DNA of 48,781 nt from Solirubrobacteraceae bacterium (GTDB lineage Bacteria; Actinomycetota; Thermoleophilia; Solirubrobacterales; Solirubrobacteraceae). The notes beneath the pieces are model-generated. The model saw nothing but the letters and a program-made list of their open reading frames with translations, had not been told where the DNA came from and made no database searches. Below are positions 37,164-43,481 of the stretch, one piece after another. The DNA lies in the NCBI GenBank assembly GCA_017882445.1, contig JADGPK010000017.1:1-48781 (forward strand), written 5' to 3'. The stretch's first letter is position 1. Each line of letters starts with the position of its first letter. A program made the translations under genes and the position numbers.

Positions 37164-37237
<74 letters not shown>

Positions 37238-37452: not shown

Positions 37453-38730
37453 TCAACGGCGCAGGATCGCTTTGCAGCACTCCGCGCGCTCGGACACGAG
37501 GTCGAGAAGCCGAGCCGGTAGAGGGCGATTGAGCGCGGCAACCTCTGGTGTAGCGACAGCCTCGGCAAATGCGTCAGGCGCTCGCTCTGCGAGTGCGAGT
37601 ACGCGGTCGAGCGCTGCGTCGGGGTCGACACCAAGATCCTGCGCAGCGCCCTCCCAGGTGTTGTGGTACGGGTAGACGCGGTAGTCGCCGCCGATCTTCA
37701 TGGCGAAGCGCAGCTTCCTTTCGTGGGCGCCATACGGCAAGGCGGACGCAACGTCGTATAGGGGCGCGAGACGCACGTCCCGGCCGGCGAGCAGAAGGGA
37801 GTAGTTCTTGGCGTGGGCGTCGGTCCCAGCGATCAGCCAGTTCCATGCCAGCGCGTCGAAGAATCGCCAGACGGCCTCGTCCGCCACGCTCGGAGGCATC
37901 ACGTCGCGAAGCAAACGCGCAAGCTCTCGTGGGCCGGGGCCTCCTTCGTTCTGGTACTTGCGGGATGGGTGGACGCCCAGCGCCTGAGCTAGATCCTCCT
38001 GGTGGATGCGAACAAGCCGATCCCCCACTCGGCGCCGGTCGTAGCGATCAACGACGATCGCGCTCTCGTCGCCGAACCGAGCCACCCGTGTCCGGGCGAC
38101 GACAAGACCGGCACGACCAGCAGCGTCGAGGCAGAGATGCTCGTTGAGATCGTGGTCGTCCAGGCCGGCCACGGCGGGCTTGAGGATGTGGCTGGTGGCG
38201 GCCGACCCCGAAGGCACGCCCCAACTTCCGTCCTCATGAAGCAACGCTGTCTTGGCCTGGGCGCCCGCAAGGCTGAACTGGCCGGTGAACTCACGACCAA
38301 GCCATGCAGTGGTGTCCTCGCGCAACTCTCGAAGGCGCTGCGCGACCTCCCCATCTGTGAGCCAGGTGACAGTCTCCGGCTTCTCGACGATTTCGTCGAC
38401 CGCCTCCGGAACGGCGAAACGAACCGCTCCCGCACAGTCATGGCCGATCGGAGTAGAAAGCAAAGAGAAAGGCGAAGACGCCGACGCGTGGAAGTCGCGC
38501 GCCCACCGCTCGAGAACAGCTTGGTTGTCTGGAAGCAGGCCCCAGAGCCAGGGGCTGATTTGCCCGTCGGGATGGGAGCGCACCGCTGTCGGCATTGAGA
38601 CCGACAGGGGAGTAGCGGTTCGGGTGTCGCGGTACGCGTCGTCGTAGTCGAACCGCAGCCGACCGCTGGGTAGCCGGGTGAGCGTGCCTGCGATCGTGTC
38701 GTCGAGGACGACGACTAGGCTGTCGGTCAT
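37453..38730 (-). CDS. hipA: HipA-family serine/threonine kinase toxin
   Basis: This is the toxin kinase of a type II toxin-antitoxin module. In the best known member it phosphorylates glutamyl-tRNA synthetase and triggers persistence. The 425-residue protein has an N-terminal HipA_N-like domain (about 5-105) and kinase motifs FSLAGAQAKTALL (ATP loop). It also has TSHILKP, IVVDRYDRR, RIHQEDLAQALG, the catalytic loop WNWLIAGTDAHAKNYSLL near residue 305 and LAPLYDVASALP (metal-binding Asp). Full length and intact motifs suggest it is active. The start overlaps the antitoxin stop as ATGA. Base composition is visibly less GC-rich than in parB beside it. Confidence 0.93.
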   Translation of the reverse strand: MTDSLVVVLDDTIAGTLTRLPSGRLRFDYDDAYRDTRTATPLSVSMPTAVRSHPDGQISPWLWGLLPDNQAVLERWARDFHASASSPFSLLSTPIGHDCAGAVRFAVPEAVDEIVEKPETVTWLTDGEVAQRLRELREDTTAWLGREFTGQFSLAGAQAKTALLHEDGSWGVPSGSAATSHILKPAVAGLDDHDLNEHLCLDAAGRAGLVVARTRVARFGDESAIVVDRYDRRRVGDRLVRIHQEDLAQALGVHPSRKYQNEGGPGPRELARLLRDVMPPSVADEAVWRFFDALAWNWLIAGTDAHAKNYSLLLAGRDVRLAPLYDVASALPYGAHERKLRFAMKIGGDYRVYPYHNTWEGAAQDLGVDPDAALDRVLALAERAPDAFAEAVATPEVAALNRPLPARLLDLVSERAECCKAILRR

Positions 38731-39008
38731 CGGCCGCGATGCTCATCTATGAGCGCGTCAAGGTCCACCGTCTCTCCCCCGCCCGAAGCGCGCGTGTCAT
38801 CGCTCGGCGCTAGTTCCAGAGCAAGGCCGAGCGCGTCAAGGACCCGCAGGAGCAGGCCAAACTCGGCCGTGGACTTTCCGGCCTCGAACTCGTAGATCCA
38901 CTTCCGGGACACTCCGGCGCGCGACGCAAGGTCTGCCTGGCTCATGCCCAGGTCGATGCGCCGGCCGCGTACGGCTGCCGCCAGGTCTCGGATGGAGCGG
39001 GCTGTCAT
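38727..39008 (-). CDS. hipB: HipB-family XRE antitoxin/repressor
   Basis: This 93-residue antitoxin has a helix-turn-helix domain (about 5-62, with MSQADLASRAGVSRKWIYEF as the DNA-binding core). A C-terminal acidic tail (TVDLDALIDEHRGR) probably contacts HipA. ATG 39008 is preceded by AGGGG. A longer frame to 39065 would include the operator and the promoter -10, so it is unlikely. The gene should repress its own promoter through the inverted repeats directly upstream. Confidence 0.92.
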   Translation of the reverse strand: MTARSIRDLAAAVRGRRIDLGMSQADLASRAGVSRKWIYEFEAGKSTAEFGLLLRVLDALGLALELAPSDDTRASGGGETVDLDALIDEHRGR

Positions 39009-39020
39009 GGGATCCCCTTT

Positions 39021-39036
39021 GCCACCGTTAGGTAGC
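39021..39036. promoter_or_regulatory. hipBA operator site 1
   Basis: This is an imperfect 16-bp palindrome, GCCACC-GTTA-GGTAGC, which fits the two-fold symmetry of a HipB dimer site. It covers the predicted transcription start, between the -10 box and the ribosome site. Confidence 0.7.
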
Positions 39037-39037
39037 A

Positions 39038-39065
39038 AGTATATCATGCCACTGCTCGGGAGCAA
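39038..39065 (-). promoter_or_regulatory. hipBA promoter
   Basis: On the minus strand a -35 TTGCTC (complement of 39060-39065) and a -10 TATACT (complement of 39038-39043) are separated by 16 bases, with an extended -10 TG at the right distance. Transcription would start near 39031, about 23 bases before the hipB ATG. Confidence 0.65.
39048..39063. promoter_or_regulatory. hipBA operator site 2 (degenerate, middle)
   Basis: GCCACT-GCTC-GGGAGC matches site 3 at 13 of 16 positions. It starts exactly 27 bp after site 1 and overlaps the -35 box, so binding here would block RNA polymerase directly. Confidence 0.55.
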
Positions 39066-39096: not shown

Positions 39097-40002
39097 CTAG
39101 GCGACCGCGCCAGGCCTTATCCGCCGCGCCAGCTCAATGGCCTCCTGTGGGCTTGAGAAGGACAGCTCGGCGCGGTATCCGCCGCCGCGCGCCGGCCTCA
39201 CGCGCACCTCCGCGCCGAGCGCGCCGCCCAGCGCCACGGCGATGTCCCGCGACGCCTGCTCCTGGTCGGGATGAGGCTCTCGGGCGCTCACGCCACGGCG
39301 GCGGGACGCGTTGGGGCCGGAGGTCTCCCCGTTGCTCTCCCGCGCGTGCTCTTCCACCACCCTCACCGACCAGCCCTGCTCGACCGCGGTGCGCGCCAGG
39401 TCCGCGCGGACGGAGTGGTCGTCGGCCAGCAGCAGCGCTCGCCCGTGGCCCTCGCTGAGAGCGCCCCGCTCCAGCAGCTCGATCGCCGCGTCGGGCAGGT
39501 CGAGGAGACGAACGAGGTTGCTGACCGCCACGCGGCCGCGGCCGACCCGCCTCCCGACGTCCTCGCGTGTCAGGCCCAACTCCTCCACCAGGGCCGCGCA
39601 CGCGCGCGCCTCGTCGATCGGGTTGAGATCCTCGCGCGCCATGTTCTCGATCAGCGCCACTTCCAGCGCGGCGACGTCCTCGCGGTTGCGCACGAGCGCC
39701 GGGATCGTCTCCAGGCCCGCTATCCGCGCGGCCCGCCAGCGCCGCTCGCCGGCGACTAGCTCGTAGGTGCCACCCGGCTTGGGGCGCACGAGCACCGGCT
39801 GAAGCACACCCTGCTCGCCCAGCGACCCGGCCAGGGCCTCAAGGGCATCCCGATCAAAGCCTCTCCGCGGCTGCTTCGGGTTCGGGACGATCAGCTCCAC
39901 GGGGAGCTCCCGCAGCTGCTCCTCGCTGCTCTGCTGGCCCTCTGCGGACACCGACAGGATCGCGCTCAGTCCCCTTCCCATCCCCGGCCTCGGCTTAGCC
40001 AC
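39097..40002 (-). CDS. parB: Chromosome partitioning protein ParB
   Basis: This CTP-dependent centromere clamp binds parS and loads condensin. It has 301 residues: N-terminal MGRGLSAIL box, the CTP-binding domain with PNPKQPR and GERRWRAARIAGL at 85-97, ALIENMAREDLNPIDEARA, and the helix-turn-helix LTREDVGRRVGRGRVAVSNL with LLDLP after it. A linker and the C-terminal dimerisation domain (EVRVRPARGGGYRAELSF) close the protein. GTG 40002 is supported by a perfect AAGGAGGT 8 bases upstream. The start overlaps the parA stop by 8 bases. Confidence 0.95.
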   Translation of the reverse strand: MAKPRPGMGRGLSAILSVSAEGQQSSEEQLRELPVELIVPNPKQPRRGFDRDALEALAGSLGEQGVLQPVLVRPKPGGTYELVAGERRWRAARIAGLETIPALVRNREDVAALEVALIENMAREDLNPIDEARACAALVEELGLTREDVGRRVGRGRVAVSNLVRLLDLPDAAIELLERGALSEGHGRALLLADDHSVRADLARTAVEQGWSVRVVEEHARESNGETSGPNASRRRGVSAREPHPDQEQASRDIAVALGGALGAEVRVRPARGGGYRAELSFSSPQEAIELARRIRPGAVA

Positions 40003-40753
40003 GCGCTGCAACCTCCTTAGCGAGTTCGAAATACGCCGCCGCCCCGGCGCTGTGCGGATCGTGATGGGTGACCGGCAGACCGTAGCTCGGCGCCTCTCCC
40101 ACCCTGACATTACGGGGGATCACGGTGTCGAAGACCAGGTCGGGGAAGTGCGCGCGCACCTCCCGCTCCACGTCCTGCCCGAGCCGCGTGCGGCTGTCGT
40201 GCATCGTCAGCAGCATCCCCGCGACGGTGAGGCGCGGGTTCAGGTCGCGCTGCACCAGCGCCAGTGTCTCCAGCAGCCCCGCCAGACCCTCGAGGGCGAA
40301 GTACTCGGTCTGCACGGGCACTATCACCCGATCCGCCGCCGCCAGCGCGCAGACCGTCAGCGGGCCCAACGATGGAGGGCAGTCGAGCAGCATGTATTCG
40401 AAGCTTTCCCTCAGCGGCGCCAGACACTCGCGCAGGCGGTACTCGAAGCCCTCGATGCGGGGAAGCTCGACGTTCGCTCCCGCCAGGCCGGCTCCGGCCG
40501 GCAGCGCGCGCAATCCTTTCACCGCAGAGTCCGTGAGGGCTTCCACGGCTGTCGCCTCTCCGGTGAGGACCTCGTAGAGGCCCGGGGCCTGGGTGCGCGG
40601 GATGCCCAAGCCGACCGTCGCGTTGGCCTGCGGGTCCGCGTCCACCAGGAGCGTCGTGTATCCCGCCTCTGCGATACACGCGGCGACGTTGACCGCAGTG
40701 GTCGTCTTGCCCACGCCGCCCTTCTGGTTGGCGACCGCATAGACAGTGCCCAT
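39995..40753 (-). CDS. parA: Chromosome partitioning ATPase ParA (Soj)
   Basis: This deviant-Walker ATPase drives origin segregation with ParB. It has 252 residues. The signature KGGVGKTT is at 11-18, with LLVDADPQANAT, LLDCPPSLGPLT and VPVQTEYFALEGLAGL, then the C-terminal TVIPRNVRVGEAPSYGLPV typical of chromosomal Soj proteins. ATG 40753 was chosen since family similarity starts at MGTVYAVANQKGG. An in-frame ATG at 40795 would add 14 residues. No strong ribosome site is visible before either. Confidence 0.94.
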   Translation of the reverse strand: MGTVYAVANQKGGVGKTTTAVNVAACIAEAGYTTLLVDADPQANATVGLGIPRTQAPGLYEVLTGEATAVEALTDSAVKGLRALPAGAGLAGANVELPRIEGFEYRLRECLAPLRESFEYMLLDCPPSLGPLTVCALAAADRVIVPVQTEYFALEGLAGLLETLALVQRDLNPRLTVAGMLLTMHDSRTRLGQDVEREVRAHFPDLVFDTVIPRNVRVGEAPSYGLPVTHHDPHSAGAAAYFELAKEVAARG

Positions 40754-40836
40754 GCGCTGCAAGCTAGCGCCGATCGCCCGAGCGCGGGTGCTCATCGCCG
40801 GCAAAGTGGGGGAATCTCCGCCTCGCAGGGCTCCGC

Positions 40837-41544
40837 TCAGCGCCCGAGCGGGCGCTTGCGCGCCATTCCCGCCCGTCTCGGGAAGCGCGCGGGCGTCTCT
40901 TCAAGCTTCACGAAGACGTGCAGATGGCGGTCCCTGGCCCCCGCAAACGGGGTGACCCTGCGGACCTCCGTCCGGCGCAGGCCCAGTATCGCCGCTGCCC
41001 GATCGGCCGCCTCCTCGTCCTCTGGCGCGCGGCCTGCACGCCAATCGACGACGGTGCCGCCCACGCGCAGGACGGGCGCCGCGTACTCCAGCACCACGGG
41101 CTGCGCCGCAAGCGCGCGGGCCAGCACCACATCGTTGCGCGACACACCCATGCGCCACTCCTCGGCGCGAGCGCAGATGACGGTCGCGTTCTCGAGCCCC
41201 GCGGCAGCGCACAGCCTCTTCAGGAACTCGCACTTGCGGCGGGCGCTGTCGAGGAGGCAGACCTCGGTGGCGGGGAGCGCCACCGCGAGCGCCACGCCCG
41301 GAAAGCCGGCGCCGCTGCCGATGTCGGCGATTCGCCCGGCCGTCCGCACCGCCTCGATCTCCAGCGCAGACAGCGAGTCCGCCAGGTGCACCTGCGCCGC
41401 CCGCTCACGCTCGCGCACCGCCGTCGGCGCATGCTCATCGGCCTCGAGCAGCTCGAGCACGGCCACGAGCTGCCGCCGCTGGGCGGCGGTCAGCTCGCCA
41501 GGGAGGTCCAAGCGCTCTCCGGCCAGACGCCGCTCACCGCTCAT
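40837..41544 (-). CDS. rsmG: 16S rRNA (guanine-527-N7) methyltransferase
   Basis: This SAM methyltransferase modifies G527 of 16S rRNA. Loss of it gives low-level streptomycin resistance in other bacteria. It has 235 residues, with HLADSLSAL upstream of the SAM motif RIADIGSGAGFPGVALAVA, LLDSARRKCEFLKRL, and VLARALAAQPVVLEYAAPVL with the usual acidic and basic positions. The C-terminus carries a basic tail. It overlaps the 3' end of the LAGLIDADG-like gene by 11 bases. Its position between khpB and parA is the usual one near the chromosome origin. Confidence 0.93.
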   Translation of the reverse strand: MSGERRLAGERLDLPGELTAAQRRQLVAVLELLEADEHAPTAVRERERAAQVHLADSLSALEIEAVRTAGRIADIGSGAGFPGVALAVALPATEVCLLDSARRKCEFLKRLCAAAGLENATVICARAEEWRMGVSRNDVVLARALAAQPVVLEYAAPVLRVGGTVVDWRAGRAPEDEEAADRAAAILGLRRTEVRRVTPFAGARDRHLHVFVKLEETPARFPRRAGMARKRPLGR

Positions 41545-41899
41545 AGCGCCCGAAGAAATCGGCGTACTTGAGCCGCATGTCGCGTATCCGACCGACTACG
41601 TGGGGGTCGATCTCGTCCGTCAGCACGGCTTCGACCACTGGGAGAACGTCCTCCGCGAGGGCGTCGCCGCGGGCCATCCACTGGTAGTAGCGACGGCCAC
41701 CGTGGTTGTATGGACCGTACAGCCGCGTCCGTGGGAAGCGCCCCTGTAGCCATAGGAACAGCGCCTCGTGGCGCACGTGCATCCGCAGCGTTATCTGCGG
41801 ATACTTGCCGTCGCCTCCGAAGTGGCCCTCTCCGATCAGGACGCCCACGACGATCCCGCGCTCCAGGTCGCTGAGCTCCGTGTGACGCAGGCCGGACAT
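41534..41899 (-). CDS. Stand-alone LAGLIDADG-like protein between khpB and rsmG
   Basis: This 121-residue protein resembles a single LAGLIDADG homing-endonuclease domain. The helix motif IVVGVLIGEGHFGGDG (about 16-31) matches the G-x-(I/L)-x-G-E-G-x-(F/V) pattern with E24 as the candidate metal ligand. It is followed by beta-strand stretches PQITLRM, ALFLWLQGRFP and YYQWMARG, and a helical C-terminus. One motif per chain would mean a homodimer if active. It is not inside an intron or intein and sits in-line in a core operon, so it may be domesticated. The ATG has no clear ribosome site, and the first parS-like repeat lies 8 bases upstream of it. Confidence 0.78.
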   Translation of the reverse strand: MSGLRHTELSDLERGIVVGVLIGEGHFGGDGKYPQITLRMHVRHEALFLWLQGRFPRTRLYGPYNHGGRRYYQWMARGDALAEDVLPVVEAVLTDEIDPHVVGRIRDMRLKYADFFGRYER

Positions 41900-41906
41900 C
41901 GCCGTA

Positions 41907-41937
41907 TTGTTTCACCGTCAAGAAAAACGTGAAACGC
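41907..41937. repeat. Split parS-like repeat, copy 1
   Basis: This 31-bp sequence carries GTTTCAC (41909-41915) and GTGAAAC (41929-41935), the two halves of bacterial parS, separated by the 13 bases CGTCAAGAAAAAC. The halves are inverted repeats and could also form a 7-bp hairpin. Confidence 0.85.
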
Positions 41938-41978
41938 CGTGGCCGCGGCGGCCTCGGTCACGGGCGCACCCTCCGAAC

Positions 41979-42009
41979 TTGTTTCACCGTCAAGAAAAAC
42001 GTGAAACGC
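41979..42009. repeat. Split parS-like repeat, copy 2
   Basis: This is identical over all 31 bases to copy 1 and offset by exactly 72 bp. Half-sites are GTTTCAC (41981-41987) and GTGAAAC (42001-42007). It ends 3 bases from the khpB stop codon. The 41 bases between the copies are GC-rich and unrelated. Confidence 0.85.
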
Positions 42010-42012
42010 GCG

Positions 42013-42516
42013 CTAAGCGTCCGGCAACGGGGAGATGACCAGATGCCGCTCCGGCTCGTCGCCCTCGCTGTGCGTTTCGACATCCTCACGCTCGCGCAGA
42101 TACTCATGCACGACCCGTCGCTCAAACGGAGGCAGCGGATCGAGCTCCACCGGTTCGCCCGAGCTGATCGCGTCATCGGCGGCGTCATCGGCCATCCCTC
42201 TCAGCGCCGCGGCGCGACGGTCGCGATACCCGTTCGCGTCGATCACCACCCGCACGGAGGACGGTCCGTCCGGGAAGACGATGCGCTGGGCCAGGTGCTG
42301 GACCGCGTCGATCGTCTGCCCGTGACGGCCGATGAACAGGCCCACGTCATCTCCCTCCAGACGTCCCGTCAGTACGCGCTCGTCCTCGGCGACCTCTATC
42401 TCGACATCGAGCCCCAGCGCGTCGGCGATCTCCTCGAGCAGCTCTTCGAGCGCCTCGGGTGGCTCGAGATCCTCGCCGCGCGCCTCTCCGTCCCGACCCT
42501 CCTCGCGCTCGGTCAT
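42013..42516 (-). CDS. khpB: RNA-binding protein KhpB (Jag), KH and R3H domains
   Basis: This 167-residue RNA chaperone-like protein is normally encoded after yidC. A short acidic N-terminus and Jag-like helix (EALEELLEEIADALGLDVE) lead to the KH motif GLFIGRHGQTIDAVQHL. A C-terminal R3H domain (PFERRVVHEYLRERED...HLVISP) follows. Related proteins bind many mRNAs and small RNAs and affect cell division and elongation. The ATG overlaps the yidC stop as ATGA. Confidence 0.92.
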   Translation of the reverse strand: MTEREEGRDGEARGEDLEPPEALEELLEEIADALGLDVEIEVAEDERVLTGRLEGDDVGLFIGRHGQTIDAVQHLAQRIVFPDGPSSVRVVIDANGYRDRRAAALRGMADDAADDAISSGEPVELDPLPPFERRVVHEYLREREDVETHSEGDEPERHLVISPLPDA

Positions 42517-43481
42517 CGTCGCCTACCAGAGCGCTTCTTCTTCTTGCGCGGCGGGCGTGGCGGAGTGCTCGGCGTGGGCGCAGCGACGGCCGCGCCATCA
42601 GCCTGCCCTCCCGTCACGCCGGCGGTAGCTCCGGCGAGGGCCGCTCGCAGGGATCGAACGGGCTTGCCGTTCGGCGCCCCGGCCGCGACATCCGGTTTCG
42701 GCGGTGGCGGCATGTGCCGGCGAATGAGGTACTGCTGGCCGATCGTCCAAACGTTCGTTGTGATCCAGTACACGAGCAATCCTGCCGGGTAGCGATACAG
42801 GATCACGACGAACACCACGGGCAGGAGCAGCATCAGACGGCGCTGATTGGGGTCTGCGGTGGCGGTCGCGATCAGCGTCGAAGCCAGCTGCGACCCCACG
42901 TAGAGCACGATCAGCACGATCAGCGCCACCCCGGTCGCCTTGTTCGTGATGTCCGGCAGGAACAGGAACTTTGCCGAGTGCGTCGCCACCTGCTCGCAGC
43001 CGATCTTTTCTAGACCCTTCGCCGGGATCTGGCTGTTGTGGAGGATGTGGTGCCCAAGCGTTCTCGAGAAGTGGCTGCGAAGCTGCGGGCCACAGATGTC
43101 GAGCTTCAGGTCCGTTCTCAGCATGTAGAACAGCGAGACGAACACCGGCAGCTGCATCAGCAGCGGCAGACACGATGCCAATGGATTGATCTTGTTCTCC
43201 TGATAGAACTTCATCAGCTCCTGCTGCTGGCGTTGTTTGTCCTCCTTGTACTTCTCTTTGAGCGCGTTGATCTGGGGCGCGAGGCGCTGCATCTCCTGCA
43301 TCGACTTCAGCTGCTTGAACGTCACAGGAACGAGAACAGCCCGGATCAGCACGGTCAGCCCGACGATCGCCAGTCCCCAGCTGCCGCCCACGAGATGGGC
43401 ATGGATGAACACCATGACCGACTCGAACAGGCTGATCAGCGGCGAGAACGCGTCCTGGATCACGTTGGCGAGGATTGGCAT
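42513..43481 (-). CDS. yidC: Membrane protein insertase YidC/Oxa1
   Basis: This insertase places proteins in the cytoplasmic membrane, alone or with SecYEG. The 322-residue protein has no large periplasmic domain. The core is present: ...WGLAIVGLTVLIRAVLVPVT with the conserved Arg in the groove, the cytoplasmic helical hairpin QLKSMQEMQRLAPQINALKE, NPLASCLPLLMQLPVFVSLF, and the last helices ending in YWITTNVWTIGQQYLIRR. An insert with three cysteines near 129-165 (DICGPQ...KIGCEQ) sits in the extracytoplasmic loop. The C-terminus is a Pro/Lys/Arg-rich tail typical of actinobacterial YidC, probably contacting ribosomes. Confidence 0.94.
   Translation of the reverse strand: MPILANVIQDAFSPLISLFESVMVFIHAHLVGGSWGLAIVGLTVLIRAVLVPVTFKQLKSMQEMQRLAPQINALKEKYKEDKQRQQQELMKFYQENKINPLASCLPLLMQLPVFVSLFYMLRTDLKLDICGPQLRSHFSRTLGHHILHNSQIPAKGLEKIGCEQVATHSAKFLFLPDITNKATGVALIVLIVLYVGSQLASTLIATATADPNQRRLMLLLPVVFVVILYRYPAGLLVYWITTNVWTIGQQYLIRRHMPPPPKPDVAAGAPNGKPVRSLRAALAGATAGVTGGQADGAAVAAPTPSTPPRPPRKKKKRSGRRR

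What the first reader, a model, noticed from the sequence alone, without database searches (positions are those of the whole stretch)
41907..42009. Two identical repeats carrying parS half-sites split by a fixed 13-bp spacer
Seen: two 31-bp copies, identical in every base, start 72 bp apart. Each has GTTTCAC and GTGAAAC, which joined directly make the core of the nearly universal ParB site (TGTTTCACGTGAAACA). Here the halves are 13 bp apart in both copies with the same spacer. No uninterrupted parS is visible in the window although parA and parB are about 2 kb away. Known: one ParB dimer contacts both halves of an intact parS, and a 13-bp insertion (about 1.25 helical turns) should break this geometry. 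Inference: this is either a lineage-specific centromere with a new ParB geometry, a site for another half-site reader, or a decayed and duplicated parS.
Basis: partly seen in the sequence, partly recalled or inferred. Interest (0 to 1): 0.78.

Follow-up and report, generated by a model that had tools for sequence, protein, structure and literature searches.

The report
Split centromere tied to LAGLIDADG-like gene
Beside the chromosome-segregation genes of this bacterium, the usual landing site of the ParB protein is pulled apart into two exact halves 13 bases apart, and in the relatives examined this split form goes together with a small neighbouring gene that resembles a homing endonuclease, which points to a new kind of bacterial centromere.

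Summary
Two identical split parS sites (GTTTCAC-N13-GTGAAAC) lie between jag and rsmG, where relatives keep contiguous parS. Of 52 ORF-bearing genomes (399 sampled in the class), 48 carry the exact split site and 4 a 13-of-14 match; 50 show no exact contiguous parS. None of 57 family genomes judged to lack the ORF has an exact split site; 18 of 19 ORF-minus loci inspected, from genomes without exact parS, keep a contiguous near-parS there. ORF and site form changed together about 17 times (at least 11 on supported branches). The pair recurs in records named as Acidimicrobiales, Acidobacteriota, Gemmatimonadota, Deltaproteobacteria and Chthonomonadaceae, with spacer 13 in 78 of 80 fetched loci. 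There the spacer holds a third, imperfect parS half. ParB's parS-contact residues are unchanged. Best reading: a working centromere read by ParB together with the LAGLIDADG-like protein, which probably descends from a homing endonuclease that attacks ordinary parS. The genetic coupling is shown; mechanism, fold and cross-phylum transfer are inferred. My searches found no report of it.

The parts
41908..41935 (-). Split parS element, copy 1 (nearest the ORF). Read on the minus strand: A half 41935-41929 GTTTCAC; degenerate inner half B' 41928-41922 GTTTTTC; linker 41921-41916 TTGACG; C half 41915-41909 GTGAAAC, followed by conserved A at 41908
   Evidence: position-by-position conservation in 54 loci; three-half-site reading from 44 sites in other lineages
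41980..42007 (-). Split parS element, copy 2, identical over 31 bp (41979-42009) to copy 1
41534..41899 (-). ORF of 121 aa, single-motif LAGLIDADG-like protein (motif VVGVLIGEGHF, acid E24 in that register)
   Evidence: one match per genome in 52 of 399 class genomes, G330 dropped; no Pfam or NCBIfam hit over threshold, best LAGLIDADG_3 E 0.013 among 64 homologues
40837..41544 (-). rsmG (gidB), marks one side of the parS locus
   Evidence: Pfam GidB E 6e-33
42013..42516 (-). jag (khpB), marks the other side of the parS locus
   Evidence: Pfam R3H and KH_KhpA-B
39995..40804 (-). parA
   Evidence: Pfam AAA_31 E 3.5e-52
39097..40110 (-). parB (start not settled), retains residues that contact parS in Caulobacter ParB

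Best explanation
The element is this chromosome's working centromere in a split form, and it forms an obligate pair with the adjacent LAGLIDADG-like protein. ParB still reads TGTTTCAC half-sites, but the two perfect ones (A and C) are 20 bp apart centre to centre, with a degenerate inner half (B') between them. I infer that a dimer of the LAGLIDADG-like protein binds the same element and shapes it (or ParB) so that ParB can nucleate and close its clamp there. I further infer that the protein descends from a free-standing homing endonuclease whose target was ordinary contiguous parS, and that the split form is the allele it cannot cut. Shown: site anatomy, synteny with contiguous parS, co-occurrence and joint change, conserved ParB contact residues, selection on the ORF, wide taxonomic spread. 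Inferred: binding by either protein, dependence of ParB on the protein, nuclease origin, fold.
For: The same locus (jag-rsmG) holds contiguous parS in ORF-minus relatives and split parS plus ORF in ORF-plus relatives. 48 of 52 ORF-plus genomes have the exact N13 pair and the other 4 match 13 of 14; 0 of 57 f1 genomes judged ORF-minus have it. About 17 joint changes on a 91-row tree, at least 11 on supported branches. 50 of 52 ORF-plus class genomes and 22 of 22 named genomes show no exact contiguous parS, among them single-contig assemblies G179, G196, G230, G284, G378 (contig counts). 78 of 80 named loci have the N13 site; the other two have at most 43 bases before the ORF. Inner half never perfect: 0 of 62 and 0 of 44 sites. 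ParB contact residues alike in ORF-plus and ORF-minus genomes. ORF under purifying selection, pN/pS 0.12-0.40 in 11 pairs, and 0.17-0.29 in 4 pairs from lineages where the motif acid is lost. One exception, G018, has lost ORF and C half together. The ParB-like clamp ParT binds a parS with +10 bp normally but fails to accumulate (PMC12260392, section 11 read), so a spaced parS would be expected to need help.
Against: No binding data for either protein. LAGLIDADG membership rests on a motif and sub-threshold Pfam matches (where unrelated families score about as weakly as LAGLIDADG_2); no PDB relative; hhalign against 9 intein LAGLIDADG domains found nothing; the structure prediction did not finish. 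If the motif register is wrong, the invariant D30 could be the acid and the 'acid-less' lineages would not be nuclease-dead. Cross-phylum transfer is not proven: the AU test does not reject one actinomycetal clade for the protein (p 0.71). The site nearly always lies 5' of the ORF, even where the ORF is flipped against rsmG/jag, which an operator would also explain. Two ORF-plus genomes have one exact contiguous parS each, on a phage-terminase contig and inside a methyltransferase ORF. Many genomes are incomplete MAGs. One ORF-minus genome outside f1 (G155) has an exact N13 pair, far from any of these genes and beside a contiguous parS elsewhere in its genome; it looks like chance, and the class-wide list was cut off.
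Confidence: 0.45

Rival explanations
1. Centromere drive without partnership. The ORF is a selfish free-standing homing endonuclease that cuts contiguous parS. The split form is a cut-resistant parS that ParB can use by itself, and the two are inherited together only because the ORF converts or kills chromosomes with contiguous parS.
For: Exact contiguous parS is not found in 50 of 52 ORF-plus class genomes and 22 of 22 named ones; the inner half is never a perfect parS half; motif acid kept in 77 of 80 named loci; free-standing endonucleases of phage T4 sit in intergenic regions and spread by double-strand-break repair (PMC2988022, passages); protein identity between groups 58-62% against 51-52% for ParA, but lower than ParA within Solirubrobacterales.
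Against: No f1 genome keeps an exact split site without the ORF (0 of 57), which would be expected if ParB used it alone. Seven of 54 loci have Q, A or S at the motif acid, yet the gene stays under selection in the 4 such pairs tested. No copy found in 72,556 plasmid and 50,697 phage records (window protein as query) or in IMG/VR. In T4 the cleavage sites of free-standing enzymes lie hundreds or thousands of bases from the gene, unlike here.
Confidence: 0.27
2. Operator. The LAGLIDADG-like protein represses its own gene through the A-N13-C inverted repeat; ParB uses the A plus degenerate B' part or sites not recognisable as parS.
For: 58 of 62 sites begin 27-187 bp 5' of the ORF match, and the site stays 5' where the ORF is flipped against rsmG/jag. 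G018 kept A plus B' after losing C and the ORF.
Against: The outer halves equal parS half-sites including the flanking A and usual T or C; extra copies lie downstream and inverted in G034, G378, G343, and orientation is flipped in G279, G199, G404; it does not explain why exact contiguous parS goes missing genome-wide with the ORF.
Confidence: 0.16
3. Decayed and duplicated parS without function.
For: The inner half is degenerate.
Against: Spacer of exactly 13 and near-perfect outer halves in 78 of 80 named loci from several phyla, while flanking bases are close to random.
Confidence: 0.03
4. The inverted repeat works as an RNA hairpin (terminator or regulator).
For: The 31-nt unit folds at -9.8 kcal/mol, z -2.7; one weak terminator-like site overlaps copy 2.
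Against: 13 of 43 near sites outside Solirubrobacterales have C in place of T at the fourth A-half base while the C side stays GTGAAAC, so the pair breaks without compensation; the 121-nt stretch with both copies folds no better than shuffles, z -0.4; no Rfam match; some copies are inverted or beyond the ORF.
Confidence: 0.02

Closest known systems
Chromosomal ParABS with contiguous parS (TGTTTCACGTGAAACA) and ParB CTPase clamp
   Same: Locus beside parAB and the origin genes, half-site sequence, ParB domains and parS-contact residues.
   Different: Half-sites separated by 13 bp with a degenerate third half between them; exact contiguous parS missing from 50 of 52 class carriers; an extra gene beside the site in the loci examined.
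ParT-parS of plasmid SCP2 and its artificial parS+10 (PMC12260392)
   Same: The one test of parS half-sites moved apart that I came across: binding kept, accumulation lost (section 11 read).
   Different: There the spacer was put in by hand and the natural site is an 18-bp inverted repeat; here a 13-bp spacer is natural and conserved.
Free-standing homing endonucleases and intronless homing (T4 seg/mob; PMC2988022, passages)
   Same: Small nuclease-like gene in an intergenic region, with a nearby site that differs between carriers and non-carriers.
   Different: Here a LAGLIDADG-like chromosomal gene at the centromere, one copy per genome, under selection, with the altered site within about 200 bp; T4 examples are GIY-YIG and HNH and cut farther away. 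Cleavage not shown here.
WhiA
   Same: A LAGLIDADG-related protein kept by bacteria as a DNA-binding protein after losing catalytic residues (PMC3781837, passages).
   Different: WhiA has a C-terminal HTH that binds DNA; this protein is one short domain in which Pfam finds no HTH.
ParB2 half-site binding in the Vibrio cholerae 39-mer (PMC3688505)
   Same: A ParB reading a half-site within a longer element (passages).
   Different: That site was tested there and is not a centromere; no partner gene of this kind is mentioned in the passages I saw.

Membership tests
Canonical parS | Contiguous 14-16 bp palindrome GTTTCACGTGAAAC | tested here: not met
Canonical parS | Position beside parAB and oriC genes, where relatives have parS | tested here: met
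Canonical parS | Bound by ParB and nucleates CTP-dependent clamps | not testable with these tools
   only conserved ParB contact residues
ParB (not Noc) | Arg and Gly at Caulobacter positions 173 and 201, with conserved 170, 178 and 204 | tested here: met
   residue roles from PMC7383237, passages
LAGLIDADG endonuclease family | LAGLIDADG motif ending an N-terminal helix | tested here: inconclusive
   motif visible and conserved; E to Q/A/S in 7 of 54 loci; register not confirmed by structure
LAGLIDADG endonuclease family | Match over a curated family threshold | tested here: not met
   best LAGLIDADG_3 E 0.013 and LAGLIDADG_2 E 0.12 among 64 homologues, window protein none; hhalign negative
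LAGLIDADG endonuclease family | Saddle-shaped beta fold, dimer, DNA cleavage | not tested
   structure job accepted but not finished; cleavage needs the bench
Free-standing homing endonuclease (intronless homing) | Carriers and non-carriers differ at the presumed target next to the gene | tested here: met
Free-standing homing endonuclease (intronless homing) | Horizontal mobility | tested here: inconclusive
   identity pattern suggestive, topology test not, no clear recent transfer within the family, no phage or plasmid copies
WhiA | C-terminal HTH domain | tested here: not met
   no HTH match by Pfam

The most novel reading that the evidence does not exclude
A homing endonuclease has made the bacterial centromere its home. 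It attacks ordinary parS, carries its own cut-proof split parS, and has spread over several phyla; in some lineages it has lost its catalytic acid and become a required centromere protein that lets ParB load on half-sites two helical turns apart. This would be a bacterial centromere drive with a domesticated end state.
Probability: 0.33. Interest if true: 0.94.

Novelty: new variant of a known kind. Interest (0 to 1): 0.86.

Why it matters
[quoted passage not shown] A natural split parS, found in several phyla and tied to one small gene, gives a direct test of why half-site spacing matters for ParB loading. It also raises the question whether a selfish nuclease can take over a bacterial centromere. 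A named type strain carries it (Conexibacter arvalis DSM 23288; to my recall a harmless soil bacterium), so both can be tested.

Tried and rejected
RNA hairpin: rejected for lack of compensation. Sigma-70 promoter within the element (a TTGACG in the linker): the scan of 41400-42600 found one promoter-like site, on the plus strand at 42077 and outside the element, and one terminator-like site that overlaps copy 2; a looser TTGAC...TANNNT search found nothing in the window. Chance: rejected. ParB covariation: the alignment columns that differ most between ORF-plus and ORF-minus genomes are outside the listed DNA-contact residues, and none separates the groups cleanly. G330's hit to the ORF (E 5e-4, 57 aa within a 620-aa frame) was dropped as not orthologous and G330 counted as ORF-minus. 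Two contigs with exact parS in ORF-plus genomes were left out of the tree: G259's encodes a phage terminase, G404's parS lies in a methyltransferase ORF. Four further rows lacked genes and were skipped from the trees (G343, G337, G032, G263), and G173, G214 and G025 were left out of the careful tree. Recent transfer within the family: protein and flank identity correlate at r 0.49, largest residual 3.0 sd, so no clear case. Topology test for cross-phylum transfer: negative. Profile comparison with 9 intein LAGLIDADG domains: negative. A search of seven ORF-minus genomes with the protein profile found nothing, but had no positive control. The permutation test on inner halves gives P 0.0006 for all 44 sites but only 0.06 for the 21 distinct variants. 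The paired test uses site labels transcribed, with G018 dropped, so it only restates that the two traits do not differ in those rows. PHROGs gave two weak hits to an HNH endonuclease family (E 0.27 and 0.37), not used.

Full report
Observation. The two 31-bp copies are identical and lie 72 bp apart, start to start. They are the only exact hits of GTTTCAC-N{0,30}-GTGAAAC in the window, where shuffles give none, and in the whole 3.27-Mb assembly. Contiguous parS is absent from the window at up to 3 mismatches; the assembly has one contiguous match with 3 mismatches and none better. The neighbourhood looks like an origin region: parB, parA, rsmG, [ORF 41534-41899], the two sites, jag (Pfam), then yidC, rnpA, dnaA, dnaN and recF, these last five recognised by eye from the translations.

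Relatives. Among the window's genome and 60 relatives, many same-genus and same-family genomes have the pair with a 13-bp spacer, while others have contiguous GTTTCACGTGAAAC. Reading the loci showed one rule: where the site is split, the small ORF lies beside it; where parS is contiguous, the ORF is missing from the same stretch. In 399 genomes of the class the ORF was found in 53, of which I drop G330; 50 of the remaining 52 belong to the window's family f1, out of 106 f1 genomes sampled (hand count). Of these 52, 48 have the exact split pair (35, 13), and G028, G279, G347 and G259 have it with one mismatch. Fifty of 52 show no exact contiguous parS; G259 and G404 have one each, on contigs without the neighbouring par-locus genes. 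Five carriers are single-contig assemblies (G179, G196, G230, G284, G378); many others are incomplete.

Non-carriers. Of 57 f1 genomes judged to lack the ORF (56, leaving out G025, which has an apparently frameshifted ORF, plus G330), none has an exact split pair and 23 have exact contiguous parS. For genomes without an exact hit I looked at the locus through yidC: 25 searched, 23 found. Of 19 genomes with both jag and rsmG on the stretch, 18 hold a contiguous site with one or two mismatches in that place and none shows the ORF. The exception, G018, has TGTTTCACGTTTTACA there: the A half and inner half of a split site, with the C half and the ORF gone. It looks like a relic of the split state. 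In the class-wide pattern search, whose list was cut off, one ORF-minus genome of another family (G155) has an exact N13 pair; its surroundings hold none of these genes and the genome has a contiguous parS elsewhere, so I take it as chance.

Joint change. On a tree of jag, rsmG, yidC and parA proteins with 91 rows (49 with the ORF, 42 without), presence of the ORF needs 17 changes, 16-18 over bootstrap trees and at least 11 on supported branches (its bootstrap had not fully settled). A quick tree of 94 rows gave 18 and 12. In the rows of these trees the site form follows the ORF; only G018 could not be scored (labels taken).

Wider spread. A scan of GTDB genomes found 227 relatives of the protein; the best 80 were fetched. 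They include Conexibacter (C. arvalis DSM 23288; strains DBS9H8 and S30A1 with complete genomes) and records named as Acidimicrobiales, Acidobacteriota, Gemmatimonadota, Deltaproteobacteria (Myxococcota in NCBI ranks), Proteobacteria and Chthonomonadaceae. 78 of 80 loci have at least one site with spacer 13 (12 or more of 14 bases); L253 and L311 have at most 43 bases before the ORF. Other spacers were scanned only for exact halves, apart from spacer 0. Of these genomes 22 were searched whole: 20 had exact split pairs and none had exact contiguous parS (their completeness is not told). No copy was found on plasmids, phages or IMG/VR contigs.

Anatomy. On the ORF strand, 54 loci of the class give (C/T)-GTTTCAC-GTTTTTC-nnnn-CG-GTGAAAC-A with sharp edges. 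In 25 loci of other groups, 44 sites read T-GTT(T/C)CAC-G(T/G)GnnAC-(C/A)T(G/T)ACG-GTGAAAC-A. So the spacer is an inner, imperfect parS half (7 bp) plus 6 bp, and the element is a three-half-site parS. The inner half is perfect in 0 of 44 and 0 of 62 sites. Shuffling columns gives P 0.0006 for this over all 44 sites and 0.06 over the 21 distinct variants. In 18 of the 25 loci two copies lie 33-131 bp apart within 400 bp of the ORF. The site is usually 5' of the ORF; in the class loci 4 of 62 lie downstream (one each in G034 and G378, two in G343), and 3 upstream ones are flipped.

The proteins. ParB residues that contact parS in Caulobacter (numbering from PMC7383237, passages) are alike with and without the ORF. 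In other groups R173, N178, G201 and R204 are also nearly constant. The ORF protein is about 110-120 aa with the motif (L/V)VGLLIGEG(S/H)F. It has no match over threshold in Pfam (64 homologues), NCBIfam (3 proteins), PHROGs or PADLOC, and none in PDB sequences. The nearest are LAGLIDADG_3 at E 0.013 and LAGLIDADG_2 at E 0.12; unrelated families also reach about 0.11. I call it LAGLIDADG-like for that reason. The motif acid is E in 77 of 80 named loci and Q in 3; it is Q, A or S in 7 of 54 class loci. In four pairs from such lineages pN/pS is 0.17-0.29, as in 11 other pairs (0.12-0.40), so selection goes on without the acid, if the register is right. A structure prediction did not finish, so the fold is untested.

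Mobility. Protein identity is 68% within Solirubrobacterales-type loci against 75% for ParA, but 58-62% between groups against 51-52% for ParA (groups assigned by me from record titles). This suggests transfer, but saturation could mimic it, and an AU test does not reject one actinomycetal clade (p 0.71). Repeated change within f1 is supported; its direction is not known.

Mechanism. Two facts need explaining together: within f1 the exact split site is not seen without the ORF, and in the loci examined the ORF is not seen with a perfect contiguous parS beside it. A nuclease that cuts contiguous parS explains the second; a need of the split site for the protein explains the first. Spacing work on ParT gives a physical reason for the need: with half-sites moved 10 bp apart it still binds but no longer accumulates (PMC12260392, section 11 read), and a ParB2 half-site element in Vibrio was tested and is not a centromere (PMC3688505, passages). 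I therefore favour a partnership with a nuclease ancestry at 0.45, pure drive at 0.27 and an operator at 0.16.

Literature. Searches for LAGLIDADG with parS (20 of 108 listed, matching 'pars' at word starts), homing endonuclease with parS and ParB (2 papers), LAGLIDADG with chromosome segregation (10 of 11 listed), parS and ParB with Conexibacter (2 papers) and homing endonuclease with bacterial centromere (none) showed no title or abstract start describing this. Only open-licence PMC papers were searched.

Noticed in passing
window 37453-39065 (-): A HipA-like kinase ORF and an HTH ORF in hipBA arrangement sit directly downstream of parB.
   Followed up: partly
L322:3283-3296 (G018): Relic of a split parS without C half and without the ORF, in a genome with no contiguous parS at up to 2 mismatches although parAB are present; what its ParB uses is open.
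   Followed up: partly
L216-L239 (ORF-minus f1 genomes): 18 ORF-minus genomes show only parS variants with 1-2 mismatches (such as GTTTCACGTGGAAC); possibly escape from a nuclease, not tested.
   Followed up: no
L211:3576-3589 (binned in G259): Exact parS core on a contig encoding a phage terminase large subunit.
   Followed up: partly
L213:3562-3608 (G025): Composite site with an extra half (GTTTCACGTGTTTCACCCCGGTGAAAC and a further GTGAAAC 20 bp before it) beside an apparently frameshifted copy of the ORF with Q at the motif acid.
   Followed up: no
window 37164-37237 (-): tRNA-Ile (gat) gene.
   Followed up: no
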